Assembly (NCBI GenBank): GCA_027068915.1
Contig: JAMOLT010000048.1
Span: 1-64,000 of the forward strand
Direction: 5' to 3'
Origin: Sedimenticola sp.
Lineage (GTDB): Bacteria > Pseudomonadota > Gammaproteobacteria > Chromatiales > Chromatiaceae
DNA length: 64,000 bases
The notes beneath the pieces are model-generated. The model was given only the letters and a program-made list of their open reading frames with translations. It was not told the origin of the DNA and made no database searches. Of the stretch, positions 5,203 through 32,136 are shown one piece after another (the stretch's first letter is position 1; every line of letters begins with the position of its first letter). The translations under genes were made by a program, and so were the position numbers.

Positions 5203-5227
5203 ACACACCATAACGAGGTACAAAGCC

Positions 5228-5467
5228 ATGACAAAGAAAAGAGATATCCATGTGGTTCCCCATCCCGATGGTGGCTGGGCGACCAAGCGGGAAGGCGCAC
5301 AACGCGCGGGTTCGATTCACCCCACCCAAAAGGAAGCCCTTGATGCGGCCAGGAACACCGCTCGCCGGGAAAAAGTGGAGGTGGTCACTCACGGAAGGAA
5401 TGGCCGCATACGGGACAGTGACAGCTACGGCAACGATCCTTTTCCACCCAAGGACAAAAAGCACTAG
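5228..5467 (+). CDS. DUF2188-type small protein
   Basis: The 79-residue protein begins MTKKRDIHVVPHPDGGWATK and has the DUF2188 signature, a beta-hairpin-like 'hVvp.pdGgW.vk..ga.ra....TqkeAl..Ar..A', ending in a Gly/Asp-rich segment (RIRDSDSYGNDP). The start at 5228 follows the weak ribosome-binding sequence ACGAGG. Function unknown. It is co-directional with DUF3892 upstream and the nuclease gene 43 bases downstream, so the three may form one transcript. Confidence 0.75.
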   Translation: MTKKRDIHVVPHPDGGWATKREGAQRAGSIHPTQKEALDAARNTARREKVEVVTHGRNGRIRDSDSYGNDPFPPKDKKH

Positions 5468-5510
5468 CAGCCAGAATGAAACAGAAGCCTCTGACCAGGA
5501 AATATCCCAA

Positions 5511-6062: not shown

Positions 6063-6118
6063 ACTCAGGATAAATCGCTCAAATCCAGGATCCTGACTCT
6101 ATTTTCCAACAATCCATC

Positions 6119-7876: not shown

Positions 7877-8813
7877 AACCCCTCATGACATAGTTCCCAT
7901 GCAAATCATCGTTTCTAATGGGCGGTTGGCACCTGGTAGGTAAGACCGTCGACGAATCTATGGGCATCTGCTAACGAGTCGAGATAAAAAAAATGATCGA
8001 TGGTCATAACGAAATTCTTTTCGTTTGGAGTGAACGGAACAGCAAACCACTTACCACCCTTGATCCCCAAAAAAAAAAAAAATGAAAAGAAGGAGGAAAA
8101 CAGTCACAGACCACAAATCGAATCTTTGGGAGTGATACGCCCCACAAGCACCGAAGCCAAACCCAGACACGAGAACACGGCCCCGCGATTTGCGCCCCAT
8201 AGGACTTGGCATTGACCGATGGGCCGAAGGAGCCGGAGCCAAAACAGGTTCCAGTCGAAAACTGCTCAAATATTAAACTACGCAAGCTACATTGCATGGC
8301 ATAGCGGACTCAACAGTCATGTATGTAACCACGCCATATTTACCATTATTTCAATAGCTTATAACAGATAAACCCTATAGAACTCTGGACTTTTTGTGCT
8401 ATCACCACTATGGTACAGGTTTTGAATAGAAATGGTGTAAAACTGGTACAACACGACCAATGGGAGCAACCCTTTGAGGCGCTCTAAAGGACAAAAGAAC
8501 AGTATCAGGCTATCAGTCATGGCGAATACGCTGAATTCAGCGAGAGTGCTGAGTCTTTGGACCCATTTGCAGCTTAGATGATCAGGCGGACTGTTTCCGA
8601 GTTTATTACCAGCCACCAAAACGGGAAAAAAATGATCTTCTACTACGCCAGCCGGGGGATATACTTGATGACAAAGGGGAAAGGAGAATACTTAAGTGAT
8701 TATCATGCCTTACGGAAAAGACAAGCAGTTCATCTACTATATCTCCCCGCTGCTTAGCTTGCTATCAACACCCCTTTTTCTCAGCAATCCCAACTCTTAG
8801 AGAGGCCAACCAT
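7877..8813. other. 937-bp non-coding region before sspF
   Basis: No credible gene is seen. The region contains a run of 14 A residues (8069-8082). It presumably carries the promoter of sspFGH. An SD-like GAGAGG lies ten bases before the sspF ATG. The rest may be degraded sequence from earlier cargo exchange. Confidence 0.45.
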
Positions 8814-17514: not shown

Positions 17515-17520
17515 AATTCA

Positions 17521-18402
17521 ATGAATTCAAATTTCTCAACCACTTCAGAAGTAGTTCAACTTACTGAACATTTCGCCAGACTATGTAGATTCCTATATCG
17601 AGATGCTACTATTGTTGAAAAACCAGGCATTGAATCAACTGAACCACATAAAACACAAGAATTTTGGAAAGTAATAGCGGAACCACTAAGAATAGGCGGT
17701 AGCATTAATAATGTACAAGTAACTACCAATTTTATTGACCCCGGTGACAGCTTAATGTGCGGTCAAGCGTGGGACTATGAATGCACATTGAGTAAAGTCA
17801 CTTCTCTTTATGCTCTAGAAATGACGCGCTTCACATGGGCCTGGATAGCATTTGAGAATACCGCAAGCCGTTGCTGCTCACATATCAAAGGCGAGGAGCC
17901 AACTGCTAGCATTATTAACTACCTAAAAACAAATTCAAGTATTAATAATTTTAAGGGACTATTGAGTATCTATGGTGTCGCTGAAAACCTAGCGAGTGAT
18001 GAAGCATTACAAGCTACAAAACATTCCGCAAATCGCACAGATAGCTCCCCTTATCTTTACATTCATTTATGCCGAGAGGTACGAAATGAGCTCCACTCAC
18101 ATTTTGAAAGTATAGAGCCATTCTTCAACGAAGATGATATTACCCTTGAAATCGACTCAAAAATCACTCTTCTTAAATCCCTTTCCCACCTACTGCTGTT
18201 TTCCATTCAAGCCGTGTTATATGCTTACTTTAGAAGTTCAAGTACAATTACTGGACGCCTGACGGAATCACAAGGAATCCCTAATAACGTGGAACTTTCA
18301 AGAGCACTCGAAATATTACATTTAGATAATCAAACAAATACATTTCAAGCAGATGATCAAACAAATGCATATCAAGGAAAATTGGAATTGGATGAATACT
18401 GA
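17521..18402 (+). CDS. HEPN-like protein of unknown function in the Ssp locus
   Basis: The 293-residue protein begins six bases after sspH on the same strand and ends directly against the convergent sspD stop, so it is embedded in the phosphorothioation locus. It contains LCREVRNELHSHFESI, with R188-N189-x4-H194. This fits the R-(N/D/H)-x(4-6)-H motif of HEPN ribonucleases found in many toxin and abortive-infection proteins. The flanking helices are mostly alpha-helical in character. No close family is recognised and it is not part of the published SspABCD-FGH set as I know it. The gene is visibly A+T-rich and lacks an obvious Shine-Dalgarno site, suggesting coupling to sspH. It could instead be a structural HEPN-type protein with no nuclease activity. 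Confidence 0.72.
   Translation: MNSNFSTTSEVVQLTEHFARLCRFLYRDATIVEKPGIESTEPHKTQEFWKVIAEPLRIGGSINNVQVTTNFIDPGDSLMCGQAWDYECTLSKVTSLYALEMTRFTWAWIAFENTASRCCSHIKGEEPTASIINYLKTNSSINNFKGLLSIYGVAENLASDEALQATKHSANRTDSSPYLYIHLCREVRNELHSHFESIEPFFNEDDITLEIDSKITLLKSLSHLLLFSIQAVLYAYFRSSSTITGRLTESQGIPNNVELSRALEILHLDNQTNTFQADDQTNAYQGKLELDEY
18325..18378 (+). repeat. Imperfect 27-bp tandem repeat inside the HEPN-like gene
   Basis: Two adjacent 27-bp units (18325-18351, 18352-18378) differ at a few bases and encode DNQTNTFQA and DDQTNAYQG near the C-terminus. This in-frame duplication may be a recent slippage product. Confidence 0.75.
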
Positions 18403-19239
18403 TCATTTATGACAGGCCAAGCATACCTTTGCTTTACCGTATAAATCATCAATATCTAAGGGTTCGCTATCCGAGCGCAACGGATTTTCTTGGAACCTAT
18501 TTTTCTGCCTAGCTAGACGATGTTCATGGTCTTCTTTAATTTTCCGAACTCGCTCTGGACTAGACAGCTCATCCAAAGACTCGCCTTGACTCCAGGTAAA
18601 AGGAGAGCCATGATCGACAGCATTTTTTTCATAGGCTCTTGCCTCGTCAAATGCTTCCGGGTGACGCTCCATGAGTCGTACCCACTCAATTTTTTGCTGG
18701 AAGAAACAGAACGTACAGCCACTACGAGTCCGCCATGAATAATATTGAGGAAGCCCTAGTCCCGCTCCATCTAAAATATCTAAAACACCTGCTTTGTCTA
18801 TACCGGCCTCTTTAAAAGGTAGTTTGATAATCAGGTTTTCATCTTTTGAGGAATAACCTTCCCGGTACTCTTCATCACCACGAATAGCAACATAGCTGAA
18901 TATCCTCTTCCCTTCTTCAAGCAATGGACGCAGCCATTGCTCAAAAGGTCTCAACTTTAATTGCCTTGTACACCATCTTGCTTGTGGAGAAGGCAAGAAG
19001 TCATTGTACTGCTTTAACCAAAAATCAAAGTCACGGTCAGGATTAAGCTTACGAATACGTTGACCCAAAAAACCTTCAAGCCTTCCAAGGTATTCGTAAA
19101 CTTCAGGAAGTTCTTTGCCTGTATCGGTAAAGAAATACTCGATATCTATGTCTGGATAATGCTGACGCATGTATACAGCAAGCGCGGCACTATCCCGGCC
19201 ACCGGACAATCCCAGAACATGGACCTCATTTCCAGACAT
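18403..19239 (-). CDS. sspD: SspD, PAPS-reductase-like phosphorothioation enzyme
   Basis: The 278-residue protein has the PP-loop SGGRDS (residues 12-17) of the PAPS reductase/ATP-pyrophosphatase family. It also has cysteine pairs suited to an iron-sulfur cluster: SGCTFCF in the middle and VCLACHK at the extreme C-terminus, plus the WCTR segment. In SspABCD systems SspD activates the DNA backbone for sulfur insertion on one strand (5'-CCA-3' in known hosts). It is the last gene of sspB-sspC-sspD. The gap to sspC is three bases. Its stop codon abuts that of the convergent HEPN-like gene. Its closest alternative, DndC, is larger and accompanies DndB/D/E, which are absent here. Confidence 0.87.
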   Translation of the reverse strand: MSGNEVHVLGLSGGRDSAALAVYMRQHYPDIDIEYFFTDTGKELPEVYEYLGRLEGFLGQRIRKLNPDRDFDFWLKQYNDFLPSPQARWCTRQLKLRPFEQWLRPLLEEGKRIFSYVAIRGDEEYREGYSSKDENLIIKLPFKEAGIDKAGVLDILDGAGLGLPQYYSWRTRSGCTFCFFQQKIEWVRLMERHPEAFDEARAYEKNAVDHGSPFTWSQGESLDELSSPERVRKIKEDHEHRLARQKNRFQENPLRSDSEPLDIDDLYGKAKVCLACHK

Positions 19240-19242
19240 ATC

Positions 19243-22200
19243 CTACACGCCCCTTCCTTTTCCCAATTTACGCTTTTCTACCTCGAGAGCTTGCATATAT
19301 CGAGCGCTCAACTCAGCTAATGCTGCGAGAATAATACTTCGTCTCTTGGTGTCGGCTGTATCCAACGCTTTTGAAACCCGATCAATAAGATCATCGATTT
19401 CTACTCTATCAGAGTCGATCACATCAAACTCTTCCAAAAGAGGTGCTGGTCTGCCTTCTATCCCAACTATTACTGCCATTGCTTGCCGCTTCTCCGGGCG
19501 ACCTTTAATTCGTGTAAAAGTTTCGGCTCTGAGAAATTTCTGGGCCATGTCAGCAAGTTCGATAGATGCTCTATCCATATCTGGATCAACCCACTCTCTC
19601 GGTGGTTTATTAGCCGCTAAACTGGCAATACCTTCAAAGCTTTCATCATCACTTTCAAATTGCGCCAAGCGTCCAACAAAAGCATCTAAACGGAAATCTC
19701 CAGCAAGCTCTTTTACATTTTCAGCCCGTTCTCGGAGTTCCAGGAGAGACTGTCGTGAAAGGTTCGGAACCTGTAGCTCTGAAAGAAGCATATCCCTTAG
19801 CCGATGGACCATAAGAGGATATGCCTGGACCAGCTCTTGCAAGCCTTCTTTGACTATCGAAACAATATTGCGGATATCCTCTTTATCCGATATGCCACCT
19901 TTCATTGAATTTACCAATGCCGGGATATCGTCAAACAAAAACTTATTTGGGTCGCGTGCACGCTTGAAGATATCACGCACTTGAATGGCTCTTGCTGACA
20001 GGCGCATTGTCCGTTTCGTCCAGCTCGGAAGCTTCTCATAGATCGCTACGAGACCACGGGCAACATCAATGGGCTCAAGATGAATAAGTTCGTTCTTCTC
20101 ATCAATGTTGCGCACAACATCTGCCATATCAGAGAGCATGAGACGCGAAGTTTTATTCAGGTCCATCCAACGAAGTTGTATGGTCTTGGCATCTTTCGCC
20201 ATATACTCAACATCGACATCATCAAACCGTGCACGGAATATACCTTCCCGGTAGATAGCCAAATGTTCCCGTTGAGTAAGAATAAAAGCGACCGAGAGAA
20301 CCGGCATCAAACCATCCTTGATACCGTAGGGCTGTTCTGCCCAGAGATCATATAGGTCTGATACGGCAACTGAACGCCTTTTATTTTTCTTTATATAACG
20401 GATCGCAGCATTCCATGCAGGAAAAAGCCTACATGTATCAGTCTCATCATCGGAAGGGGCTACGAAGCGCCAACCGTCTTTCGTTTCCGAATAAAGCCCG
20501 GTAGCTTCCAGAAAAGAGGCGTAAAGACCACCTTCAGCCGGATAACCGACTATATCCAAACGTGGTTCACCTTCTTTCGTAATCATGTGCCTCAGAAGGG
20601 TATTGCGACCTGATATAGCACTTGGGGACGGCTTCTGGCGGTTCAGAAGTTCATTATGCAGTTTTGGACATTGATCGAAGCGTTTTTCAGCAAATTCAGA
20701 TGCAAGGGTATTCAAATCAGACTGAAAATATCGTTTTGTTGAATAGTGTTTACGGCACCATTCCGCTCTATCAAATGATTTTCTGAGTTCAGTTTCTAAC
20801 TGAGCCTGTAGATCAGCAAATCTAGCTGTAACTTCTCGCCTTGCGATTGGATCACCGTTAAGTTCAGGGTTATAGTTACTAACTTTATCAAGCGCCAGCA
20901 GTTCACGTGCTAGCAATACCACCGACCAGGATTGCGGCGAGTAACCTACAACAATATCCCACTCATCGCTTAACTTTGCCGCGTCCCGGCATAAAGCTTT
21001 AACTTTCTCTTCCTCTTCGCCCTCAGTGGGAACCACAAGTAAGAACTCTCCAATCACACCATTTTGTGGCTGAAACTGTGATGCTACATCCATCACATCC
21101 TTAGCTGGAGTAATATTCACGTCAAACCATCGCATTGCTCCAGTTTCATGATAATGGCGTTTGGCGAGGATGGGTTGTAGACCCGCAATCGACTTTAGTG
21201 CCTCAAAATCAAGCTCATCAATTTCCTCCAATGCAATCCCAACGGCCTGATCAATATTGAAGTCACTTCCAGCAAAAATGGCGTGCGCGTCCTGAAACTT
21301 CTTAAAGATTGTTAACGACCATTTATCGAGCTTGGCTAATGCCGCCTTAAGATCTTTCTCACTCACATCTGGGAAACATGTTTGGATGAGATCAAAGCTC
21401 GGAACGAGACCAGAACGCTCTTTAAAGAGATCGACAACGGCTATGGTTTTTAGCAGGTCAACTAAAAACCCGTCCCCCCCCTGGGCTTCACATCGCTCTA
21501 ATGCTTCTGCTGCAAGTGCCCAACGGTGACCATCGGGTGATGCGAGAATCGACGGCTCCAGATTAACTCTTAAGTAATCCCAAAGTTTTGAAGGCGTATA
21601 GAAGTCGGTTTCATCCGCCGAACGCAAGTAATCCTGAAACCCATGAGGCTCTGCCGAGTTAAGAAAGCCAAAAATACTGCGCTGGTTTTGTCCAAACCGG
21701 CGACGTGAAATCGGCCCGAGAAGACAGGCAACAACCGGATGCAGTGGCCAACAATTCTTTAGCATCTCCGCAAGGTGACCAGCATCTTGAGCGCGGTCTT
21801 TCCGTACAATTTTTGCAACGGCTTTGGATTGGTCTTTAGATTTCGGACTTGCCCGGTTACACTCAATCGCACGAGAAATCAGATCTATCTGTTCTTCACC
21901 TACTGTATTAACAGGCAGGTCAATAAAACGGCCCTGGATTTTCGCCCATTCATCACGCAGTTCATGCGAAAGACGATGCGCATATTCGTCAAAGGCTTGG
22001 TGCAAAACACCTATAAACAGAAACCGGCCATTACTTCGGAATGCAGCTTCTGCAAGCTGTTGAAATATAAAGACATCCGAACCATCCTGTGCAGCCGCCT
22101 CAAGGAATTTCCCCATTTCGTCTACAAACAGGATCAAGCCGCCGTGTGTCTCGGGTTTACTCGTAGCAATGTCCATTAAACCATTGACGACATGCTTTTC

Positions 22201-22638
22201 GGTCCATCCCCCTCTAGGACGGCGGGCAACATATCCGGCCTCTTTTAAGGCTTCTCCAAGAACCTCAACGGGGTTATCTCGCCTCCCTACAACGGGAAGA
22301 ACACGCCAACCTTTTGAGCCCGTCGGCAACGCCTTCCACATTGCATTCGTAAGCTTTCGACCGAAAAGCTTTGCTGCCTCTTTCTGCAATTCTGCATTGC
22401 CATTCAGCAATGCACTAAGTGCGATTGCCAGACTAGACTTACCACTACCGTAGGGACCAGTCCACGTAAACGCCCCTTGTCCAGTTTCAGAGACATGGCG
22501 AGCCATTGACATAAGAATGCCAGCGGAGGATTGTGGGCAAATGAATCCATCAAGGGCATTCTTATCCCCCAAATCCGTATCAATGCAAATGGATTTTTGA
22601 AACCGTCTGGCTACCGTAACTTGATCAACTAACGCCAC
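19243..22638 (-). CDS. sspC: SspC, ATPase of the phosphorothioation system
   Basis: The 1131-residue protein has Walker A GPYGSGKS at residues 61-68 and a Walker B-like GGLILFVDEMGKF near 170. Its size and order (after the DUF4007 protein, before the PAPS-reductase-like protein) match SspC, the ATPase of SspABCD. A BREX BrxC-type ATPase is the main alternative, but no other BREX genes are present. It starts with GTG at 22638, whose G is shared with the sspB stop (TAGTG), and a strong GGGAGG lies upstream. Confidence 0.85.
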   Translation of the reverse strand: MALVDQVTVARRFQKSICIDTDLGDKNALDGFICPQSSAGILMSMARHVSETGQGAFTWTGPYGSGKSSLAIALSALLNGNAELQKEAAKLFGRKLTNAMWKALPTGSKGWRVLPVVGRRDNPVEVLGEALKEAGYVARRPRGGWTEKHVVNGLMDIATSKPETHGGLILFVDEMGKFLEAAAQDGSDVFIFQQLAEAAFRSNGRFLFIGVLHQAFDEYAHRLSHELRDEWAKIQGRFIDLPVNTVGEEQIDLISRAIECNRASPKSKDQSKAVAKIVRKDRAQDAGHLAEMLKNCWPLHPVVACLLGPISRRRFGQNQRSIFGFLNSAEPHGFQDYLRSADETDFYTPSKLWDYLRVNLEPSILASPDGHRWALAAEALERCEAQGGDGFLVDLLKTIAVVDLFKERSGLVPSFDLIQTCFPDVSEKDLKAALAKLDKWSLTIFKKFQDAHAIFAGSDFNIDQAVGIALEEIDELDFEALKSIAGLQPILAKRHYHETGAMRWFDVNITPAKDVMDVASQFQPQNGVIGEFLLVVPTEGEEEEKVKALCRDAAKLSDEWDIVVGYSPQSWSVVLLARELLALDKVSNYNPELNGDPIARREVTARFADLQAQLETELRKSFDRAEWCRKHYSTKRYFQSDLNTLASEFAEKRFDQCPKLHNELLNRQKPSPSAISGRNTLLRHMITKEGEPRLDIVGYPAEGGLYASFLEATGLYSETKDGWRFVAPSDDETDTCRLFPAWNAAIRYIKKNKRRSVAVSDLYDLWAEQPYGIKDGLMPVLSVAFILTQREHLAIYREGIFRARFDDVDVEYMAKDAKTIQLRWMDLNKTSRLMLSDMADVVRNIDEKNELIHLEPIDVARGLVAIYEKLPSWTKRTMRLSARAIQVRDIFKRARDPNKFLFDDIPALVNSMKGGISDKEDIRNIVSIVKEGLQELVQAYPLMVHRLRDMLLSELQVPNLSRQSLLELRERAENVKELAGDFRLDAFVGRLAQFESDDESFEGIASLAANKPPREWVDPDMDRASIELADMAQKFLRAETFTRIKGRPEKRQAMAVIVGIEGRPAPLLEEFDVIDSDRVEIDDLIDRVSKALDTADTKRRSIILAALAELSARYMQALEVEKRKLGKGRGV

Positions 22639-23588
22639 TATGCAGCCTCCCTTTCATTAGAACGCTTAAAATCCTTTTTAACAAAATCTAGCGCCTTGCC
22701 GAAGTCATATTCAGGACTACGAACAACCTGTTTTAGTCCGGCGGTTTCTGACCATCGGAGTGCGTTATTAGTAACCCTATCTAAATGAGATAGCCTTTCG
22801 ACAACATCATTTTCATCGAGTAGAAAAACGCGCCCTGGTGACCCAGGCTCATAAGCAATCGCTTCAAAGGAGAGTGTTGAGGAGGCTGGAGAAAACTCTT
22901 TCCAAAATTCGAGCAATGCATAGGCAAACGTGCCATCACCTAATGTGGTTTTTTGGCCACGAACAAACCGGAATTCATCGCGTTTAGACACAGGCTTAAT
23001 CAAGCCGAGTTCAGTAAGCGGACATTCGAGAGAATCATCTTTTCCAGCTTTAGCAGATGATGGCTGAGTTGCGTAGGTTCGGATAAAACAGGCGACATCC
23101 TTTTGAACGGTAGATTTGGCCACAGTAGGCCAATCACGCTGCAATCTCTCAATGAATTTATCACGCTCAAAAGTAACCGCAGAGAAATAACTGAACGCCC
23201 AATACCATGTGGTTTTTTTCTTCCATTCTGTTGCCAACTTCCAGTGAATCAGCCATAAAGAAATTGGATGTTCTAAATAAAGATCAACGCCCCCCTTTCC
23301 GAACAACAGCTTGCCAAGCGGTGTAGTTTTCACCTGATTGGTGCCTGATGGCTCCTCAATAATGCCTGCAACCGTAGCCCAATGACGCATAGACGACACC
23401 ATATTCTTACCTACACCGAAACGCGCTATGGCATCATCCCCCCAACATAAAGATTTGTTGTTGGTTTCTTGCTGAGTTTCAGCAACGCGGTCATAGCATT
23501 TCTTTAGCCACCCATACCGCAACGGAAAGGTCTCATGACCTGAAAACTGAGGTTTATAGCCTTGTTGGTAGAGTGGCCCGCGTGCCAT
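22638..23588 (-). CDS. sspB: SspB, DUF4007 nicking subunit
   Basis: The 316-residue DUF4007 protein begins MARGPLYQQGYKPQFSGHET and contains FPLRYGWLKK, the family signature. SspB proteins nick DNA and recruit the sulfur-transfer machinery in SspABCD. The start is set at 23588 because AGGAG lies nine bases upstream; a frame open to 23669 has no such signal and would begin inside the promoter region. The Shine-Dalgarno site itself is part of a perfect inverted repeat (23597-23619). The gene overlaps sspC by one base and is divergent from sspA. Confidence 0.87.
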   Translation of the reverse strand: MARGPLYQQGYKPQFSGHETFPLRYGWLKKCYDRVAETQQETNNKSLCWGDDAIARFGVGKNMVSSMRHWATVAGIIEEPSGTNQVKTTPLGKLLFGKGGVDLYLEHPISLWLIHWKLATEWKKKTTWYWAFSYFSAVTFERDKFIERLQRDWPTVAKSTVQKDVACFIRTYATQPSSAKAGKDDSLECPLTELGLIKPVSKRDEFRFVRGQKTTLGDGTFAYALLEFWKEFSPASSTLSFEAIAYEPGSPGRVFLLDENDVVERLSHLDRVTNNALRWSETAGLKQVVRSPEYDFGKALDFVKKDFKRSNEREAA

Positions 23589-23596
23589 AGTATTTA

Positions 23597-23619
23597 CTCC
23601 TGGAGGATCCATCCAGGAG
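23597..23619 (-). promoter_or_regulatory. Hairpin covering the sspB ribosome-binding site
   Basis: CTCCTGGA (23597-23604) and TCCAGGAG (23612-23619) are perfect 8-bp inverted arms with a 7-base loop. In the sspB mRNA the 3' arm contains the AGGAG Shine-Dalgarno sequence nine bases before the ATG, so a folded leader would hide it. It could equally be a DNA operator. No protein binding it is known to me. Confidence 0.55.
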
Positions 23620-23745
23620 ACTCTAATATAGATATTTGGTATAGTCAATTTCGATCTGGAAGCTTCCACCAGAAGCCGGCGGAAAATCGTAATAGGACTA
23701 CAATTAGCAATAAGCCAAGTATCATATTGATTTAAAAGGAATAAT

Positions 23746-24933
23746 ATGAAGACACTGTATTTTGACTATCAAGCAACCACACCCGTTGCAGACGAAGTTT
23801 TGCACAAAATGCAGCCATATTTCATCGAATCCTTCGCCAATCCACACGCTTCAGATCATGCCCTTGGCTGGAAAACTGCTGCAGCTGTTGAGAATGCCGC
23901 ACAACAGGTTGCCCGTCTCATTGGTGCCGACAGCGATGAAATCATCTTTACTTCCGGGGCAACCGAGTCCAACAACCTAGCCATCCTCGGTCTGGCTAGA
24001 CGGGCCGCAATGACCGATGCCCCGAAAAAACGAATCCTCCTGAGCGCTATTGAGCACAAATGCGTCCTATCGGTAGGACGCATTCTGCAGGAGCAATACG
24101 ACTACACAGTAGACTCTATTCCTATAGATCGGAATGGCCACATTGATTCTGCGGAGCTGGAGCGATTACTCAGCGAGGATGTACTTCTTGTCTCCATCAT
24201 GGCTGTAAACAATGAAATCGGTTCCATACAGGATATAGACTCAATTTCCGAGACTATCAGGAAAAATGGCGCGATCTTCCACTGCGATGCAGCCCAAGCT
24301 CCCATGGCCATGACCATGGAGAGTTTAGCCGCTAAGGCAGACATGATCAGCCTGTCAGGCCATAAAATGTATGGCCCCAAGGGGATTGGCGCACTCCATA
24401 TTCGCCGCGACCTTCAGGATAAAATCGAGCCGCTGATCTACGGAGGTGGTCAGCAAAACGGACTTCGGTCTGGCACATTACCCACACCGTTATGTATCGG
24501 CATGGGCGCTGCCGCCGAATATATCGGATCGTTTGAGGTATCGGAAAAGCGCAAAGAGCTTCAAGTGCGCACGAACAGATTTATCGACATGCTCTCGGCT
24601 CTCTCATGGCCAACTCAATTGCATGGAGATGAAGGCCAAAAACGACATCCTGGCAACATATCCATCGGTTTCAGAGGATTTGACGCAGAAGATATCCTGG
24701 GAGCGTTACAACCTCACTTGGCCGCCTCAACCGGATCGGCCTGCACATCGGGCATTCCTGAACCGTCTCACGTCTTAAAAGCCATCGGCCTGACAATGGA
24801 AGAGGCAAAGTCTGTCATTCGATTCAGCCTTGGCTTCGAAACGTCTGATCAAGAGGTCGATGAAGCCGTCAAATTGATCAACGTAGCATTGCAGAAACTT
24901 TCCGACCCTAAAGTCCAGCCAAAAAACAGTTAG
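23746..24933 (+). CDS. sspA: SspA (DndA/IscS-type) cysteine desulfurase
   Basis: The 395-residue protein is a class V aminotransferase-type cysteine desulfurase. The PLP lysine is K207 in SGHKMYGPKG. The catalytic cysteine is C333 in STGSACTSG. The N-terminus has FDYQATTPV and a typical SGATESNN segment. It supplies sulfur from cysteine for phosphorothioate formation. It is divergent from sspBCD across 157 bp and ends 60 bases before the convergent tniQ gene. The absence of iscU, iscA and iscR nearby argues against a housekeeping Isc role. Confidence 0.88.
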   Translation: MKTLYFDYQATTPVADEVLHKMQPYFIESFANPHASDHALGWKTAAAVENAAQQVARLIGADSDEIIFTSGATESNNLAILGLARRAAMTDAPKKRILLSAIEHKCVLSVGRILQEQYDYTVDSIPIDRNGHIDSAELERLLSEDVLLVSIMAVNNEIGSIQDIDSISETIRKNGAIFHCDAAQAPMAMTMESLAAKADMISLSGHKMYGPKGIGALHIRRDLQDKIEPLIYGGGQQNGLRSGTLPTPLCIGMGAAAEYIGSFEVSEKRKELQVRTNRFIDMLSALSWPTQLHGDEGQKRHPGNISIGFRGFDAEDILGALQPHLAASTGSACTSGIPEPSHVLKAIGLTMEEAKSVIRFSLGFETSDQEVDEAVKLINVALQKLSDPKVQPKNS

Positions 24934-24993
24934 TCAACAATGAGCTCTTTATGGGCACGGATAACCAATGTAAGGGGGTGGGTACAAAACAGC

Positions 24994-27891
24994 CTACGAA
25001 GCATCGAGCCCGCCATCTATAAACTTCAAAAAGGGCTGCATGCTGTTCCGATGTCCAGGATATAATCGGCAAATTTCGTCATAATAAAGACGAAAGCTCT
25101 TATAAGACACTTCACCACCGGATACGTCACCAACTGCCTCTAGAAATAGGGCAGCTGCCCGAATGTAGCTTGCCATCGTTCGAGGAGAATAACAGGCATA
25201 CTCATTCCAACCTTTCTTCCCCCACCGTCGGTTTTCCGCCACAAGATATTCCCAATATTCTTTCAAGACGTGTCCGTACCATTCGGTGGCCGCTTCATCG
25301 AGCATTCGCCGGCACCAAGCCATCCTACGCGCAGTCCCCATTTCAGGAGAATCCAGCGCTGGCACCCATCCCTGCGCCGCAAGCACCCGCCAGGGCTTGT
25401 GATATTTTCCGACAGACTGCCCCTTTAAGAGATCAAACAACTCGTCAAGATCAAGCTTTTCCTGGGCTCCCACACTGGCTTCCTCCAACATCAGGAAAAA
25501 AGATAAATGCTTTTTCAACTTGATCGCAGCCTGGTTGGCGGAAAGCGCGGAGCGCCGTTCCTTAGCATAGGCCATCCATCCTTCCCGAACCCATTCCAAC
25601 CGCAATACCTTCAACCCTTCATCCAACCGCCTGACGAAAAGACTGTCCCAGTAACAGGCCTGGCACATCACGCTGCTATGTCGTTTTCCCTCCTTACCGC
25701 AACACGGACACAGAAACGGCTTGTCTCCGGTTTCCACGCAGGTACCACACAAAGGAGAACCATCCCTACGATGACCACGTATAGGGCGATACTTTCCGCA
25801 TCGGGCGCAAACAGCGTTCCCCTTGGTACGGCAAGTGGGACATACGGGCTCATTGAACCCCCTTTTGAAATCTCGCGCCAGGTTCTTGCTCAATCGCCCA
25901 CAGTTTGAACACTTTTCTGGCTTCCTGAAATGTTTGGCGCAAGAGCCGCAGACCACACCGATTTTCAATGTCAGCCCAGCCCGCCGTACCGGCTTTCCAC
26001 AGCGCACGCACTCCCTGTCGAGAGCCCCACAGCTCTTACACAGCGCAGGGCGCTTGCCGTGGAAAGTACGCACCGTTTTCCCGCAGCGCCGACACGACAC
26101 GGGCTCGAACTCCCGCGCGTAACAGGTGGCGCAGTACGCCCTGTCCTCATACACTCGTGCCGCCTTGTGCATGGATCGTCCGCAATGATCACACCGCGTG
26201 TGAGGCCGGACATGCCTCCGCTCCAATGCCTCATTCCGAGGAGCTTCATCGGAAACGCCAATATCACTCGGACGTTTCGGCATGCCGAGGGCTTCGGGTG
26301 TTTTCGACACATGCCCCGTGATGGAACGCTGTCGGCTCTCATCCACAACAGGAGCTTTCACTGCGGGGTTATAGGGCACGCGATGGCGATTTTGTAGCAC
26401 GGGCAATTTGACACCGGGAAGCACCTGTCTGAACCAACGCTGTCGCTCCAGGCATACCAAAAAAGACCGCAAAGCGTAGAGATAAGTGAGCTGTGTCGCC
26501 GGCGCCAGCTTGCGCACAAGCCCAATCTCCTCATGCCAGACATCGATGGCACCTTCATCGCATCGCCACGGCACTTTTCCCACATGGCGAACGAACCCGT
26601 ACACACAGCGTAAATCCCGATTGATCGTTCTCGGTGACACGCCCTCAATACGACGGGCGTGGTACCAAGACAAGAACGCCCGTCGTAAAACATCCAAATC
26701 GACTTGGGGAACCCCCTGGAAAACGGGCATGGGCACCATTGGTTTAGGTATTTTGGCTGGCGATCCTTCACGTTTCCTGCCTCTGGCTCTATTCACCAAC
26801 ATCCAGTACTTACTGGATTTCAGTGGCCACAAGGCTTGCACCAACCAATATGGCGGAATCCGCCGATCCGGAAACAAATCACTGTAGCGAACCCCCGCCT
26901 CACGGCAAGCCGCCAACAACTGATTTGGCCAATCGGACATCAGCCAACCCAATGCGGCCATGACACGGAGTCGATCAGTCACCCGCATCAGCTCAAAGAG
27001 CGTCATTGATTGAGAGTCATCACCCAAATTGAGCGAACCTTTCGATAATGAAGAAACGGCCTTGAACAATCGACCCTTGGTTCGTCGTGACCGTAAGCCC
27101 AACGCCAATACCCGAAGGCCGGAAAAATAAACCAGTGCATGCACGGGTCGGTCGGCTTCTGGAAACGCCCATCCGATATTCATGGCGGTCATCATATGCT
27201 CTTGGATGGATTCGGCTGATCTCCACAACGCCGATTCCCGCTCCGACGGCGCTGGATCGTCGATGTGGCTTAAGGGGCGATGGCAGGCGTGGCACAAAGA
27301 TAAATCCCGGGGTTTCATGGGGCTCTGGTGGAACATGACCACCGAACCGCAATGGGGACATGCGTCCCGCAGAGGCAGGTGATGAATGGGACAAATCGTG
27401 GCAAACGCCAATCGCCAGATTTTACGAAAATACGGTGTTTCATCATCCGCCAGGCAAGCTGGACAATATTGCTGGCCATGCAATTTTCTCAACCGATGAT
27501 ACATGCCCACGCTCAGCAACCAGGGTACATGTCCATGGGAGGGTAAAGCTTCAAACACCGTTCCCACATATGCGTGGAGTGACATATCCCGGAACTGGGA
27601 GGTTGAACGTCCCGTATGCTCCGCCAGTAATTCCACGATCTCCTGATCGACACAACGGTCAATATCACGATTCCAGATCGGTTTACCCGGCCAAAGCGCC
27701 GAACAGAAGGTGTGGCGCTTCAACTGATACCCCATGATCAGGCGCATCAACCAGGACGAGAGCAACTCATCCGCCAATGGTCTGGGCCGGTACGGCCACA
27801 ATGGCGGGGGTCCCCTGTGAGGGGGATCAGTCCAGGGCGCTTCTCCGCTTGGAGGGTGCAACCCAATCGATGTCATCGAGTGTTTTGGCAT
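24994..27891 (-). CDS. tniQ: TniQ/TnsD fusion with recombinase-like and zinc-ribbon domains
   Basis: The 965-residue protein has three parts. Residues ~20-300 are a TniQ/TnsD domain (RPLADELLSSWLMRL, YCPACLADD, ICPIHHLPLRDACPHCG). Residues ~400-490 look like the SAM-like core-binding domain of tyrosine recombinases (FLSWYHARRIEGVSPRTINR). From ~563 to ~750 there are 12 CxxC knuckles, enough for six zinc ribbons. A second helical core-binding-like segment closes the protein. No recombinase catalytic R-H-R-Y set is seen. TniQ/TnsD proteins choose the attachment site, so this one is the likely comM selector. The start at 27891 has GGGAG upstream; it overlaps tnsC by 65 bases. Confidence 0.85.
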   Translation of the reverse strand: MPKHSMTSIGLHPPSGEAPWTDPPHRGPPPLWPYRPRPLADELLSSWLMRLIMGYQLKRHTFCSALWPGKPIWNRDIDRCVDQEIVELLAEHTGRSTSQFRDMSLHAYVGTVFEALPSHGHVPWLLSVGMYHRLRKLHGQQYCPACLADDETPYFRKIWRLAFATICPIHHLPLRDACPHCGSVVMFHQSPMKPRDLSLCHACHRPLSHIDDPAPSERESALWRSAESIQEHMMTAMNIGWAFPEADRPVHALVYFSGLRVLALGLRSRRTKGRLFKAVSSLSKGSLNLGDDSQSMTLFELMRVTDRLRVMAALGWLMSDWPNQLLAACREAGVRYSDLFPDRRIPPYWLVQALWPLKSSKYWMLVNRARGRKREGSPAKIPKPMVPMPVFQGVPQVDLDVLRRAFLSWYHARRIEGVSPRTINRDLRCVYGFVRHVGKVPWRCDEGAIDVWHEEIGLVRKLAPATQLTYLYALRSFLVCLERQRWFRQVLPGVKLPVLQNRHRVPYNPAVKAPVVDESRQRSITGHVSKTPEALGMPKRPSDIGVSDEAPRNEALERRHVRPHTRCDHCGRSMHKAARVYEDRAYCATCYAREFEPVSCRRCGKTVRTFHGKRPALCKSCGALDRECVRCGKPVRRAGLTLKIGVVCGSCAKHFRKPEKCSNCGRLSKNLARDFKRGFNEPVCPTCRTKGNAVCARCGKYRPIRGHRRDGSPLCGTCVETGDKPFLCPCCGKEGKRHSSVMCQACYWDSLFVRRLDEGLKVLRLEWVREGWMAYAKERRSALSANQAAIKLKKHLSFFLMLEEASVGAQEKLDLDELFDLLKGQSVGKYHKPWRVLAAQGWVPALDSPEMGTARRMAWCRRMLDEAATEWYGHVLKEYWEYLVAENRRWGKKGWNEYACYSPRTMASYIRAAALFLEAVGDVSGGEVSYKSFRLYYDEICRLYPGHRNSMQPFLKFIDGGLDAS

Positions 27892-28717
27892 CGATCTTCT
27901 CCCGACGGCTTTCAACAGCGTGGACAGCCGCCCTTTTCAATAATTGGGTGATCTCCCCGAGCCTACCCTCGCTCATCGCCAAAATCTTGCGGGCCAGCGT
28001 GGAGGAGACCAGTTGCGATGGGTGCTTCAAGGGCACCAAACGTTCGAAACTCACCAAAAAACGCAGGAAATCCTTATCATTTCGCCAGATCGGCAGCGAA
28101 TACGGTTCGAATCGATTGGCCATTTGCGGATCGGTATGGATAGCTCGGGCGGCATCCTTGATGCCAACCCCGACGATTGGTACCTGCATGACATTTCCCA
28201 TTCGCTTGATGGCATTCAGCAGCGCCTGTTGTTTATCCCGCCGCGTCGCCAGCATGTTGTGAATCTCGTCCACGATGATCAAGCGGACCCCCACATATCG
28301 GAACATCCTATACACCTCCTCGCGTTTTTGCGCCACCGACATGCTGTACTTGAACGGTGCCAACAAACTCACCAGGATATCCGAATAGAAGGAGTCCTCA
28401 TCCGGCGCCGGCCCTATCTCCACATAGAGTACGGGAACGAGATTCGTCTCTTCATCGAACTTGGCTTCCCCAAGGTGTTTCCGCGCAAACCGTTTCACCA
28501 TCGAGGACTTGCCATTGTTGGTGTCTCCCACCAATAGAAGGTTGGGCATTCGCTGCACCTTGGGATGCGCGAGGAGCGATTCAAGCCGGCGCTCCACTTC
28601 TTGGGCCACGGGATAGCCAATCCACCGATCCCGATTGATATAGGCGATCCGCTCTTCATCCGGCAGTTCCAGCGCCGCCAAGGCCTTGGGGGTGAGATGC
28701 TCTTGTTCAGAGGTCAT
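27827..28717 (-). CDS. tnsC: TnsC/TniB-type AAA+ transposition regulator
   Basis: The 296-residue ATPase has Walker A GDTNNGKS (residues 64-71) and Walker B VRLIIVDEIHNML, close to TniB/TnsC of Tn7-like and Tn5053-like elements. It links the target selector to the transposase and can impose target immunity. The start MTSEQEHLTP at 28717 has GAGGA upstream and overlaps the end of tnsB by 11 bases. At under 300 residues it is much shorter than Tn7 TnsC (555 residues). Confidence 0.92.
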   Translation of the reverse strand: MTSEQEHLTPKALAALELPDEERIAYINRDRWIGYPVAQEVERRLESLLAHPKVQRMPNLLLVGDTNNGKSSMVKRFARKHLGEAKFDEETNLVPVLYVEIGPAPDEDSFYSDILVSLLAPFKYSMSVAQKREEVYRMFRYVGVRLIIVDEIHNMLATRRDKQQALLNAIKRMGNVMQVPIVGVGIKDAARAIHTDPQMANRFEPYSLPIWRNDKDFLRFLVSFERLVPLKHPSQLVSSTLARKILAMSEGRLGEITQLLKRAAVHAVESRREKIDAKTLDDIDWVAPSKRRSALD

Positions 28718-30644
28718 TGTCCCAGTCCTCATCGATCTCATCAAAAGGCCGAATATCGTGGATCGACGGTTCTTCTACTTGTTCGTCTTCCGGAACGGTC
28801 GCCTCCAACTTAGGTTTTTCAGCCTGCTCCCAGCCACGTTTACGTTGCGCCTTGCGTCGAGCCGCTTTGGTCTTGGTACGTGCTTTCTCCTCGATTTCCC
28901 GCATGCGCTCACGCGCCTGGAAAATCATTTCCTCATCCACCTGCTCCTTACCTTGTTCCTTCAGGAAACGACGAATCGCCCTCAATTCCCATAGACTGAT
29001 GGAGGGACGTGCGATGTTCCGATAGGGGATTTCAAAATATTGTTTGAGTTCCGGATCGAAGAAATAGATGACACTTATGTCCCTAGGGTCACGCCGAACG
29101 ATGAACTTCCGCTTCCTGGCGGTGTTTTCAGGATCCTTGGCGCCAATCCATTTCCGCAACACGTCGGAATAGTATTCAATGCCATCCCAGACGATGCCAT
29201 GGCGCTGAACGGTGCGTGTTTCAAACGGCATCAGATCCAGACGCAACCTCGACTCATCCATTATGCGGTCGGGCAAACCGATACCCGGTCTGTCGGCGGT
29301 ACCGAAGATACCTTCTTCGTATTTGGCCAACGGCGTGGTTTTGAGCTCACCATGGATCCGCTGGTGGTAGTCATTGACGATCAACTCAGCCAGCCACTGT
29401 TCGAACTCCGAAAGCGTCATGCACGAGTCTTTTTCGGGATCGTAATCCGCTCGATCCTCGATATTCGAATAGGTGGAGCCATCCAGTTCATGGATATCCT
29501 CATGGAGGGTACCCAACAAACGCTCTATGTGCGCTCCGTAGCGTGGCTTCTTCACTGGACGCCAAGTGAGATCAATGTGATGTTCGATACAGGCCTTCTT
29601 CAACATCTCGCCCCGAAACTCACCGGCGTTATCCGCATGGATGGTGCGCATTTTCCCCCACACGGGCCACGTTCCCGGTACATCCAACTCAAGCAACCAA
29701 GCCTCCTTGGGAAGAATGCATTTCACCAGACACAATCCCGTCGCCATGTTCCCCGGGGGATCGATGGAAACATAAAATCCGCACACCATCCGGCTAAATA
29801 CATCGATGGCCAAGGTGATCCAGGGCCGGCCGATGGGAAGCCGTTCCTTATCGTCCACGAGAATGATATCCACTCGAGTATGGTCGATCTGCACAACTTC
29901 TAAAGGCCAGTGCGCATCCGGAAACTTTCCCCGTATCTCCCCATACGTTTCCTCCACGACCACACCCCGTCGTTGTCCCCTCATGACATCCTTGGCCGTA
30001 ATACGGGTGATCCATCGCCGAATAGTCGAGGGATGCGGAGGCTCCAGCCCTGCGTTCCTGCACAAACGATACACCTCTTTAATCACCGTTCTAGGACTGC
30101 GTTTTCTTGGCTGGGCCCGCTTCTCGACCTTCTTTTCCAATGTGCGCTTATTCAAATAGATGTCGTTGATCACACCTTCGACGATCGTGGTTAATTCAGG
30201 ACGCAAACGTACCGCATTAGGCTTGGGCCCCCTTGGGTAGGGCACCAGCGCCGAAACCTTGCCGAAGGTGCGATATCGTTTCATCCACCGGTAAATGGTG
30301 GCTGTGTTCACTCTGGCAGTATCAGCAACAATTTGCACTTGTTCACGACTGGTGGACTCAACGGTCAACAGAGGGCGGATGATCTCCATACGACGCTGAG
30401 CTTCCCGCCAATCCCTGTCTGGAATATTCTCCAGATCTTCTCCAACAAAAGCTTCTCCATCCTGGTACTCATAGGGACGTAAATCGGCGATGGGGAGCTT
30501 CTTTGCCTCACCATTGGAAGCATTCTTGGCCAACACGAACGTCAGATCCAGGACATGAGTGATCCGGAAATGCTGCCCGTGAAACAAGACATCAGTTCCC
30601 GGCTCAAAAGAAAGAATATCGTTATGTGGAGACGCTTCAGGCAT
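28707..30644 (-). CDS. tnsB: TnsB/TniA-type DDE transposase
   Basis: The 645-residue transposase has an rve-type catalytic core. D254 lies in QIDHTRVD, D338 in IHADNAGEF and E374 in HIERLL, with exactly 35 residues between the last two as in DD35E enzymes. An N-terminal region with helix-turn-helix character (~95-220) would bind the end repeats, and the charged C-terminus (ETARKRKF... then Glu/Lys-rich) fits the TnsC-interacting tail. The ATG at 30644 shares one base with the tnsA stop (TAATG). Together with TnsA it makes the cut-and-paste transposase. Confidence 0.95.
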   Translation of the reverse strand: MPEASPHNDILSFEPGTDVLFHGQHFRITHVLDLTFVLAKNASNGEAKKLPIADLRPYEYQDGEAFVGEDLENIPDRDWREAQRRMEIIRPLLTVESTSREQVQIVADTARVNTATIYRWMKRYRTFGKVSALVPYPRGPKPNAVRLRPELTTIVEGVINDIYLNKRTLEKKVEKRAQPRKRSPRTVIKEVYRLCRNAGLEPPHPSTIRRWITRITAKDVMRGQRRGVVVEETYGEIRGKFPDAHWPLEVVQIDHTRVDIILVDDKERLPIGRPWITLAIDVFSRMVCGFYVSIDPPGNMATGLCLVKCILPKEAWLLELDVPGTWPVWGKMRTIHADNAGEFRGEMLKKACIEHHIDLTWRPVKKPRYGAHIERLLGTLHEDIHELDGSTYSNIEDRADYDPEKDSCMTLSEFEQWLAELIVNDYHQRIHGELKTTPLAKYEEGIFGTADRPGIGLPDRIMDESRLRLDLMPFETRTVQRHGIVWDGIEYYSDVLRKWIGAKDPENTARKRKFIVRRDPRDISVIYFFDPELKQYFEIPYRNIARPSISLWELRAIRRFLKEQGKEQVDEEMIFQARERMREIEEKARTKTKAARRKAQRKRGWEQAEKPKLEATVPEDEQVEEPSIHDIRPFDEIDEDWDNDL

Positions 30645-31306
30645 TAGGGCAACACCCATATCCGGCTACGCATGTTCAGCGGTTCCGTCAAAGCCACACC
30701 GATCTCGCCCAGCGCGACCAACTGCCACAATACGGAAATAAGCCGGGCTTTTTCCCATTTGTCATCGGTAATGGCGGTCACCAGACTCTCGGGATCCGCC
30801 TCGCGCATTTGTTTCATCTGGATCCAGATTTGATCCGCACGCGCCTGGTCGTATTCCTTGTGCCGAAAGCGGCGAAGAAACTTTGCATTCTTCAGAAACG
30901 GTGTGCGGATTTCACGCTCGGTGAGCGTCTTGAAACGCCACCCTCTTTTTTTTGCTTCCCGATATGCCGCCCGGAACCTCGACTTGAACTCATCCCAATC
31001 CTCCTTGAGTTCCTTGCGGAACTTTACCTCAGCAAGAAGTGGAGCCTTATCTTCTGCTTTGTTGCCGGTTTTTTCGTAATAAATCAGAACATCCGGAGTG
31101 TAGGAACGCGTTTTTCCTTTCTCATCACAGTATTGAATCGTGATGGGCTGCTCAACAAACCGGCTCACATCGGGATCGAAATCCAGGAGCGCATACAGAT
31201 CACGCTCCAGCGATCCTTCAAAAGCAGCCATGCCTTCCTCTGTCTTCACGCTGGTCACACCACCGGTGATCACCCGGTAATTTTTCGGTATTCGCCTTAC
31301 ACCCAT
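30644..31306 (-). CDS. tnsA: TnsA endonuclease
   Basis: The 220-residue protein has a TnsA nuclease core. E34 is in GSLERDL, D72 in SYTPDVL, and E93-x-K95 in LLAEVKF. This corresponds to the E/D/Q-x-K set of Tn7 TnsA with Glu in place of Gln. TnsA cleaves the 5' ends so that the element moves by cut-and-paste without cointegrates. Its presence separates this element from Tn5053-type TniABQ transposons. It is the first gene of tnsABC-tniQ. Its leader contains the right-end binding sites, which would allow the transposase to repress its own operon. Confidence 0.93.
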   Translation of the reverse strand: MGVRRIPKNYRVITGGVTSVKTEEGMAAFEGSLERDLYALLDFDPDVSRFVEQPITIQYCDEKGKTRSYTPDVLIYYEKTGNKAEDKAPLLAEVKFRKELKEDWDEFKSRFRAAYREAKKRGWRFKTLTEREIRTPFLKNAKFLRRFRHKEYDQARADQIWIQMKQMREADPESLVTAITDDKWEKARLISVLWQLVALGEIGVALTEPLNMRSRIWVLP

Positions 31307-31440
31307 AAGCTATTGTTTATATTAGAGTAATTTTGTCGCAAAAATAATGTGCATATTGCAATCTTGTCGCATAATTAATGCGCATCAGTCGCATAAATAA
31401 TGCACAAAAATATGATAAGTCTTTGATACTTGATTTGATT
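31307..31440 (-). promoter_or_regulatory. tns operon promoter region within the right end
   Basis: 134 A+T-rich bases lie between the tnsA start and the terminal repeat. The tns promoter must lie here, and the four TnsB-type sites at 31333-31458 overlap it. Autorepression by TnsB is the usual arrangement in Tn7-like elements and is inferred here. Confidence 0.6.
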
Positions 31441-31458
31441 GTCGCATAATTAATGCGA
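31333..31458 (-). repeat. Four TnsB-type binding sites, right end
   Basis: Four related sites of about 20 bp share the core GTCGCATAATTAATGCR: 31333-31352 (the most divergent), 31364-31383, 31386-31405 and 31439-31458. All have the same orientation. They are inverted relative to the two left-end sites. Unequal site numbers at the two ends are typical of Tn7-like elements. Confidence 0.85.
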
Positions 31459-31465
31459 AATGACA
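31441..31465 (-). repeat. Right terminal inverted repeat
   Basis: It is the perfect reverse complement of 127-151 over 25 bases, ending ...AATGACA. Confidence 0.94.
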
Positions 31466-31470
31466 GGGGC
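31466..31470. repeat. Target-site duplication, right copy (GGGGC)
   Basis: GGGGC follows the terminal ACA and is identical to 122-126. Confidence 0.92.
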
Positions 31471-32136
31471 TCCAATCCCAGGCCGGGAGAGATTTCCCTG
31501 GCCCATTGCGGAATTTTGTTCCTGGACGAGATTGCCGAGTTCCCCAGGGGCGTGCTGGACGTATTGCGCGAACCGTTGGAAACCGGTGTTATCAACATCT
31601 CCCGTGCCAGCCGCAGCGCCGAATACCCCGCCCGCTTTCAACTGGTCGCCGCCATGAACCCCTGCCCCTGCGGCCATCTCGGTGACCCCATCAAAGCCTG
31701 TCGCTGCACCGCGGAACAGACTTCTCGCTACCAGGGCAGGATCTCCGGCCCCCTGCTGGATCGCATCGACCTGCAGGTGCAGGTTCCTGCACAAGCCGCC
31801 GAAACCATTCTTTCAAAATCGGGCAACGAACAAACCAGCACCCAGGTTCGTACAAAAGTCATCGCCGCCCATGAACAACAACTGCAACGACAGGGCTGCA
31901 ACAACGCTCATTTGCAGAACAGCGCACTGGAGCGGCATTGCAAGCTGGACGAAGCAAGCCGCGCCCTGCTGATACAGGCCATGAACAAGCTCGGGCTGTC
32001 CGCCCGCGCCTACCACCGCATCTTGCGGGTGGCACGCACCATTGCCGACCTGGAGCAGCAGCAGGATATACAGCTCAAACATGTCACCGAGGCCATTGGC
32101 TATCGGCGCATGGATACCACAAGGCAATCAAAATAG
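31466..32136 (+). pseudogene. comM: comM (yifB) 3' part, interrupted
   Basis: From the duplication the frame reads GSNPRPGEISLAHCG, then ILFLDEIAEF (Walker B), LVAAMNPCPCGHLGD and the C-terminal KLGLSARAYHRILRVARTIADLE of ComM/YifB. This follows directly on the fragment at 1-126. An ATG inside the transposon terminus (31453) could let this half be translated alone, but without Walker A it cannot be an active helicase. Confidence 0.93.

What the first reader, a model, noticed from the sequence alone, without database searches (positions are those of the whole stretch)
24994..27891. TniQ fused to recombinase-like segments and an array of six zinc ribbons
Typical TniQ/TnsD proteins are about 400-550 residues. 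This 965-residue fusion adds core-binding-like segments without recombinase catalytic residues and 12 CxxC knuckles. Extended DNA reading by zinc ribbons and helical SAM-like domains could give recognition of the comM target. I know of no described system with this exact layout.
Basis: partly seen in the sequence, partly recalled or inferred. Interest (0 to 1): 0.85.

Follow-up and report, generated by a model that had tools for sequence, protein, structure and literature searches.

The report
TniQ fused to Tsy-derived comM selector
A transposon that has jumped into the bacterial gene comM carries a single long targeting protein that appears to be stitched together from a transposon adaptor and the DNA-binding parts of two recombinases of another comM-hunting element; the layout was mentioned once before in print, but its likely origin and its relatives are new here.

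Summary
One ORF (965 aa from the ATG at 27891) joins TniQ, a core-binding (CB) segment, twelve CxxC pairs and a helical C-terminus without a catalytic domain. It lies beside tnsABC in a 31.3-kb Tn7-like transposon (127-31465, duplication GGGGC) inside comM. The layout is not undescribed: Faure et al. 2023 report one TniQ-TnsF fusion (SCZ64694) like it, and TnsF is their experimentally shown comM selector. Whether our protein is SCZ64694 could not be checked. The "six zinc ribbons" are the TnsF array: all 24 cysteines match four of four stand-alone TnsFs.

Added here: (1) relatives in a Desulfuromonadales MAG and in genome G206 (truncated), so a lineage; (2) the linker CB matches the N-terminal domain of the partner recombinase (YRec) of Tsy, a separate transposon; in 398 genomes the best two non-self hits were Tsy-type YRecs; (3) the TnsF part groups with proteobacterial Tsy TnsF (98/95), not Tn7-type TnsF (AU p 0.048, borderline). 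So TniQ probably carries the DNA-binding parts of both Tsy recombinases: a second capture. (4) Fused and split elements use the same comM position (7 of 7 readable). Function is inferred; structure models were too weak to help.

The parts
24994..27915 (-). TniQ-CB0-TnsF fusion ORF (973 aa from TTG; 965 aa from ATG at 27891)
   Evidence: ORF without internal stop; relative L001 87% identical in its best segment
27370..27795 (-). TniQ domain, residues 41-182 (PF06527)
   Evidence: Pfam E 8.4e-25, above cut-off; aligns with TniQ of four plasmid-borne Tn7-like elements over about residues 40-390
26362..26703 (-). CB0: linker core-binding domain, residues about 405-518, related to the N-terminal domain of Tsy-type YRec
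   Evidence: weak Pfam Phage_int_SAM_4, below cut-off
25654..26193 (-). TnsF zinc array, 12 CxxC pairs, residues 575-754
   Evidence: 24 of 24 cysteines invariant in 6 sequences and in 8 including two Tsy-type TnsF
25300..25644 (-). CB1-like segment of TnsF, residues about 758-872
   Evidence: sequence alignment with TnsF and Tsy-type TnsF; boundaries approximate, fold not confirmed
24997..25299 (-). CB2-like segment, residues about 873-973; no pCAT follows
   Evidence: boundaries approximate, fold not confirmed
27827..28744 (-). TnsC / TniB-type ATPase
   Evidence: Pfam TniB E 1.6e-68
28707..30659 (-). TnsB transposase
   Evidence: Pfam Mu-transpos_C E 4e-13
30644..31306 (-). TnsA endonuclease
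   Evidence: Pfam TnsA N (8.2e-19) and C (3e-6) domains
127..31465 (.). Tn7-like transposon; inverted ends TGTCATTTCGCATTAATTATGCGAC with palindromic repeats (possible TnsB sites) inside both ends
122..126 (.). target duplication GGGGC, left
31466..31470 (.). target duplication GGGGC, right
31471..32136 (+). 3' part of comM; Walker B codons GILFLDE begin at 31510, 39 bp after the duplication

Best explanation
The protein is the one-piece comM target selector of this transposon. Its TnsF part (zinc array, CB1, CB2) binds comM around the Walker B codons; its TniQ part, covalently attached, recruits TnsC, which brings TnsA and TnsB with the transposon ends; insertion follows 39 bp upstream of the Walker B codons with a 5-bp duplication. 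The covalent link replaces the TniQ-pCAT contact of split Tn6022, and pCAT is gone. The linker domain CB0 comes from the partner recombinase (YRec) of a Tsy-like element, so TniQ carries the DNA-binding parts of both Tsy recombinases, in Tsy gene order, with both catalytic domains removed. Shown here by sequence: anatomy, homologies, insertion site, selection. Inferred: DNA binding, TnsC recruitment, the direction of capture (Tsy to Tn7), and that CB0 contacts DNA.
For: tnsABC directly upstream, ends, duplication, comM. TnsF homology with all 24 cysteines. TnsF of AjTn6022 binds comM, binds TniQ and is needed for transposition (Faure et al., sections read). CB0 profile (3 fusions) against 398 genomes: hits in 12; after the window itself the YRecs of the two Tsy-type loci G488 (7.5e-14) and G466 (3.0e-13), then a G786 recombinase (3.3e-7), the other 8 genomes at 2.5e-4 or worse, although tyrosine recombinases are common (1083 PF00589 matches in 138 of 140 genomes of a phylum sample, summed). 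Reciprocal: a profile of 7 Tsy-type YRecs finds CB0 in 3 of 3 fusions (domain E 1e-8 to 4e-8); the CB0 profile gives XerC 28 and XerD 140, and no TnsF CB1/CB2 better than 3900. TnsF tree, 23 rows: fusions with 4 proteobacterial Tsy-type TnsF 98/95; all Tn7-type TnsF plus fusions as one clade, AU p 0.048. Without the two longest rows: 95/92 and p 0.042. A 10-16 residue stretch of CB2 is deleted in 13 of 13 Tn7-type TnsFs but filled in both fusions and all 8 Tsy-type rows. Seven of 7 Tn7-type elements whose comM junction I could read insert at the same comM position.
Against: The AU tests are borderline and p was 0.0897 with 19 rows; the branch uniting Tn7-type TnsF is only 86/80 or 82/83. The exact RW/RY..GW wording of the CB2 stretch and the HS motif of the last ribbon are shared with 3 of 4 proteobacterial Tsy-type rows; G992 has neither. 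The insertion point equals that of Tn6022-type elements, which a single Tn7 origin would explain more simply. Three of 8 Tsy-type YRecs match CB0 only weakly (domain E 4 to 21). I call loci 'Tsy-type' from gene content (YRec next to a TnsF with a catalytic domain); comM was seen only in L082, not in the stretches held of L030 (G488) or L042. In one search only the best candidates of a genome were scored (up to 11). Models were too weak to confirm CB folds (pLDDT 42.6 and 70.0) and fold searches showed no recombinase. The G206 fusion stops after the third ribbon. No binding or transposition was measured on any fusion.
Confidence: 0.8

Rival explanations
1. In-place fusion: the ancestor was an ordinary Tn6022-type element; its own tniQ and tnsF genes fused, pCAT was lost, and CB0 is an unrelated or duplicated CB domain.
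For: Adjacent tniQ-tnsF order in split elements; the same insertion point; TnsB of the window is nearest among plasmids to a TnsF-bearing Xanthomonas element (43.5%); AU p 0.09 with 19 rows.
Against: Fusion TnsF groups with Tsy-type TnsF 98/95 or 95/92; it keeps the CB2 stretch that is deleted in 13 of 13 Tn7-type TnsFs; CB0 matches Tsy-type YRec specifically, which an in-place fusion does not predict.
Confidence: 0.15
2. Conventional TnsD: a TniQ with an ordinary helix-turn-helix C-terminal extension; the zinc and recombinase resemblance is superficial.
For: TnsD proteins have long, diverse C-terminal regions (Faure et al., passages); my models could not exclude other folds.
Against: All 24 cysteines and the CB1/CB2 register align with TnsF over about 400 residues; 28% identity over 395 residues to the Variovorax Tsy-type TnsF, E 4e-51 in a small set.
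Confidence: 0.02
3. A dead or degraded selector: the missing catalytic part is decay and the element no longer moves.
For: The G206 fusion ends after three ribbons; the last 70 or so residues of window and L001 differ sharply.
Against: Low dN/dS over TniQ, CB0 and zinc array; 87-88% identity between hosts whose RpoB is 62% identical, suggesting recent movement, unless the L001 contig is misbinned; matching ends and duplication.
Confidence: 0.07

Closest known systems
TniQ-TnsF fusion SCZ64694 (Faure et al. 2023, PMC10293859)
   Same: TniQ, CB-like domain in the linker, N-terminal region of TnsF, no CAT (two sentences in the section read)
   Different: In the sections read (11-15) and the passages I saw no statement on where the linker CB comes from and no other member; supplements were not read.
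Tn6022-type Tn7-like transposons with stand-alone TnsF
   Same: tnsABC, TniQ, TnsF zinc array, CB1, CB2, comM, same insertion position
   Different: Here TniQ and TnsF are one protein, pCAT is absent, CB0 is added, TnsF is nearer to Tsy-type; no TnsE recognised in the ORFs scanned
Tsy transposon (YRec-HTH-TnsF)
   Same: TnsF zinc array, CB1, CB2; CB0 resembles the YRec N-terminal domain; same order, YRec part before TnsF; comM
   Different: No catalytic domain in the fusion, tnsABC present; the Tsy-type locus L082 keeps comM through the Walker B codons, whereas the fusion inserts upstream of them
Tn7 TnsD (recalled, and described in Faure et al.)
   Same: TniQ domain plus C-terminal extension in one protein
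   Different: Different extension (zinc array and recombinase CB domains) and a different target

Membership tests
TniQ-TnsF fusion as described by Faure et al. 2023 | N-terminal TniQ | tested here: met
   PF06527 E 8.4e-25
TniQ-TnsF fusion as described by Faure et al. 2023 | TnsF N-terminal region in the same chain | tested here: met
   24 of 24 cysteines and CB1/CB2 register
TniQ-TnsF fusion as described by Faure et al. 2023 | CAT absent | tested here: met
   protein ends where pCAT begins in stand-alone TnsF
TniQ-TnsF fusion as described by Faure et al. 2023 | additional CB-like domain in the linker | tested here: met
   by sequence only; model too weak
TniQ-TnsF fusion as described by Faure et al. 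2023 | sequence identity to SCZ64694 | not testable with these tools
   no tool here fetches a record by that protein accession
Tn6022-type with stand-alone TnsF | TnsA, TnsB, TnsC | tested here: met
Tn6022-type with stand-alone TnsF | separate tnsF gene with pCAT that contacts TniQ | tested here: not met
   one ORF, pCAT absent
Tn6022-type with stand-alone TnsF | insertion in comM with target duplication | tested here: met
Tn6022-type with stand-alone TnsF | tnsE on the opposite strand | tested here: inconclusive
   none recognised by Pfam or PADLOC among the ORFs scanned; not every ORF was scanned
Tsy | catalytically active YRec and TnsF plus HTH gene | tested here: not met
   no Phage_integrase hit in the fusion and nothing after CB2; an HTH gene was not sought
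Tn7 TnsD | C-terminal helix-turn-helix domains | tested here: inconclusive
   sequence fits TnsF instead; the whole protein was not modelled

The most novel reading that the evidence does not exclude
Tn7-like transposons domesticated the Tsy targeting machinery at least twice: once as stand-alone TnsF (Tn6022), and once by fusing TniQ to the DNA-binding domains of both Tsy recombinases (YRec CB plus TnsF zinc array, CB1 and CB2) while deleting both catalytic domains. The result is a two-recombinase chimera that keeps the same comM insertion position without the TniQ-pCAT interface.
Probability: 0.7. Interest if true: 0.62.

Novelty: new member of a known kind. Interest (0 to 1): 0.5.

Why it matters
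It turns a brief note in print into a lineage with a traceable origin, and gives a natural experiment on how Tn7 adaptors acquire new targets: both DNA-binding halves of a foreign recombinase pair are chained to TniQ. The same insertion position in split and fused elements makes it testable whether a covalent link alone replaces the TniQ-TnsF interface.

Tried and rejected
Structure route: CB0 and CB1-CB2 were each modelled with a two-row alignment (window, L001), the only rows the tool allowed; pLDDT 42.6 and 70.0. Foldseek against the PDB gave nothing with E below 1.6 (CB0) or 5.5 (CB1-CB2), and VIA-align on the second model gave Z 3.8 at best, no recombinase. That absence says nothing either way.

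Viral contigs: three scans found no relative. Plasmids: of 292 records with a match none covers 80% of the fusion in one place, and CB0 alone had no match at E 0.01. PHROGs gave a TniQ-region match and nothing significant for the TnsF part; the NCBIfam glucosidase hit (21.4 bits against a cut-off of 741.9) was ignored. phmmer against solved structures gave only a weak TnsD match (0.0043) and chance-level zinc and integrase rows.

CB0 as an internal copy of CB1/CB2: rejected, since the CB0 profile found only itself in the own genome and no TnsF CB region. Loss of the Tn6022 TniQ tail helix: I considered claiming it, but a tryptophan- and arginine-rich stretch near residues 375-392 could be its equivalent, so I make no claim.

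Rows left out of the TnsF trees: L031 (three ribbons only), L049, L018, L021, L080/L085, L075/L086 and near-duplicate hits; kept although incomplete: L029 (424 aa) and L081 (8 of 12 CxxC in its frame). Not in the TnsB/TnsC trees: L028, L048, L081, L083, L084 and others not tried. Those trees put the window and G206 fusions together for TnsB (87/93) and left TnsC unresolved; long branches were flagged. Weak or partial genome hits that I did not open up: G021, G094, G267, G360, G629, G745; a further fusion among them is not excluded. L065 and L066 recombinases were scored but are not established Tsy.

Full report
1. What is there. The ORF at 24994-27915 (minus strand) is open over 973 codons, or 965 from the ATG at 27891. 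It lies downstream of tnsA, tnsB and tnsC (Pfam TnsA N and C; Mu-transpos_C; TniB). The transposon runs from 127 to 31465: its inverted ends read TGTCATTTCGCATTAATTATGCGAC inwards, flanked by a GGGGC duplication (122-126 and 31466-31470), with palindromic TCGCATwAwTwATGC repeats inside both ends. The flanks, joined, give an open comM frame.

2. What the zinc array and C-terminus are. Aligned with stand-alone TnsF of Tn7-like elements on plasmids of Xanthomonas, Pseudomonas putida, Halomonas and Acinetobacter, all 24 cysteines are invariant and the two helical segments after the array run in register, but the protein ends where pCAT begins. Over the 21 other TnsF-type rows of the trees the number of CxxC varies from 8 (an incomplete frame) to 22, most often 12. 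Faure et al. 2023 (PMC10293859; sections 11-15 read; passages) describe TnsF by zinc fingers, CB1, CB2 and pCAT, show that it binds comM at the Walker B region, binds TniQ, and is needed for AjTn6022 transposition. They also report one fusion (SCZ64694): TniQ, an additional CB-like domain in the linker, the TnsF N-terminal region, no CAT. That is the layout here. A search for the whole words TnsF and transposon gave 2 of the held papers: this one and a 2024 review seen in the listing only (two searches were broader and seen as listings).

3. It is a lineage. A pattern scan of the species-genome collection found one close relative, L001, in a Desulfuromonadales MAG, 87% identical (88% over residues 44-965); this scan finds close relatives only. 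RpoB of that MAG and of the window's genome are 62% identical over 590 residues, against 72% to G242, a genome of the window's class, so the gene has probably crossed between distant hosts, unless that contig is misbinned; the gene starts at a contig end. A profile search of 369 genomes of the class gave 7 with a match, the own genome included, one of them G206, whose 690-residue ORF has TniQ, the same linker domain and the first ribbons, next to tnsABC and in comM, and stops after the third ribbon. The phylum (8 of 398 with a match, own included), the own order (3 of 210, own included) and a second order (5 of 250) gave stand-alone TnsF, Tsy-type loci or fragments; I recognised no further fusion, but six weak or partial hits were not opened up (see Tried and rejected). 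A split element sits in comM in a genome of the window's own family (G858); its TnsF frame shows only 8 of 12 CxxC and may be broken.

4. Where the linker domain comes from. The window protein matches the N-terminal domain of the YRec in the Tsy-type locus of G488 (31% over 89 residues, tblastn against that locus). A profile of the three fusion CB0 domains against 398 genomes of the phylum had hits in 12: the window, then the two Tsy-type YRecs (G488 7.5e-14, G466 3.0e-13), a recombinase in G786 (3.3e-7), and eight genomes at 2.5e-4 or worse (up to 11 candidates scored per genome). Tyrosine recombinases are abundant in such genomes: 1083 matches in 138 of 140. In reverse, a profile of seven Tsy-type YRecs finds CB0 in all three fusions (domain E 1e-8 to 4e-8 for 100,000 sequences). 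With the CB0 profile, five of eight Tsy-type YRecs give domain E-values from 2e-12 to 7e-5 (L030, L040, L044, L082, L042), three actinobacterial ones (L047, L045, L043) only 4 to 21, XerC 28 and XerD 140. YRec, HTH and TnsF stand in this order on Variovorax, Streptomyces and Arthrobacter plasmids. 'Tsy-type' here means this gene content; comM was seen only at L082.

5. Where the TnsF part comes from. In the 23-row tree, the two fusions group with four proteobacterial Tsy-type TnsFs (98/95), the 13 Tn7-type TnsFs form their own group (86/80), and holding fusions and Tn7-type TnsF together is rejected only at the edge (AU p 0.048; 0.0897 with 19 rows). Without the two longest rows the fusion-Tsy group stands at 95/92 and p is 0.042. 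A stretch of CB2 is deleted in 13 of 13 Tn7-type TnsFs and filled in both fusions and all eight Tsy-type rows; its exact wording, and an HS motif in the last ribbon, are shared by the fusions with three of four proteobacterial Tsy-type rows but not G992. The stretch is probably ancestral and lost in Tn7-type TnsF; either way the fusion did not come from a TnsF that had lost it.

6. Mechanism. Fifteen loci were checked for the comM stretch before the Walker B codons; 8 had it in the DNA held. In 7 of these 8, all Tn7-type (fusions: window, L031; split: L027, L081, L083, L084, L032), the transposon end ACA meets comM at the same base, followed by GGGGC, GCGGC or GCAGC; the eighth, the Tsy-type locus L082, keeps comM through the Walker B codons and diverges after them. 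Only in the window were both duplications read. Fusion and split elements therefore use the same position, 39 bp upstream of the Walker B codons in the window. I infer that the TnsF part marks comM and the tethered TniQ hands the site to TnsC and TnsAB, and that the tether replaces the TniQ-pCAT contact. What CB0 does (extra contact, bending, or spacer) is open.

7. Selection. Against L001 the ORF is under purifying selection in TniQ, CB0 and the zinc array (dN/dS 0.11, 0.27, 0.11) and free in the 45-residue spacer (1.3); CB1 is nearly identical, CB2 much diverged. Nucleotide identity falls from 91% in residues 871-900 to about 62% after residue 900, which looks like a recombination or replacement of the C-terminal end.

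8. Verdict. Function is inferred from TnsF; no model reached useful confidence for the CB folds.

Noticed in passing
window 8814-24933 and 812-2314: The transposon carries a phosphorothioation defence set: SspA, SspB, SspC, SspD, SspF, SspG and SspH by PADLOC, plus a dCTPase/deaminase-type protein at the far end and a SNase-domain protein at 5250-6062.
   Followed up: partly
window 24997-25218 against L001: Nucleotide identity between the two fusion genes drops abruptly near residue 900, from about 91% to about 62%: a mosaic C-terminus just where the catalytic domain would have begun.
   Followed up: partly
L031 4723-6792: The G206 fusion ends after the third ribbon and no further TnsF match follows in the locus: either a truncated gene or a shorter working form.
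   Followed up: partly
L046 3899-5545: A Tn7-like element on an Acidovorax plasmid has a TnsF whose match to Tsy-type TnsF extends into the catalytic-domain region (query residues 11-606, ORF), perhaps an intermediate in the loss of that domain.
   Followed up: no
L068 6455-7720: About 14 kb downstream of the G206 fusion lies a second TniQ-like ORF of 422 codons; its relation to the element is unknown.
   Followed up: no
L065 5157-7619: G786 has a recombinase with a CB0-like N-terminus followed by a 355-residue ORF with three CxxC pairs, possibly a shorter Tsy-like pair.
   Followed up: no
L026 (contig of L001): The other fusion element's neighbourhood has different genes: two DNA methyltransferase-like ORFs, an McrB-like ATPase and a regulator, judged by eye from translations only; no transposon end motif was found on that contig.
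   Followed up: no
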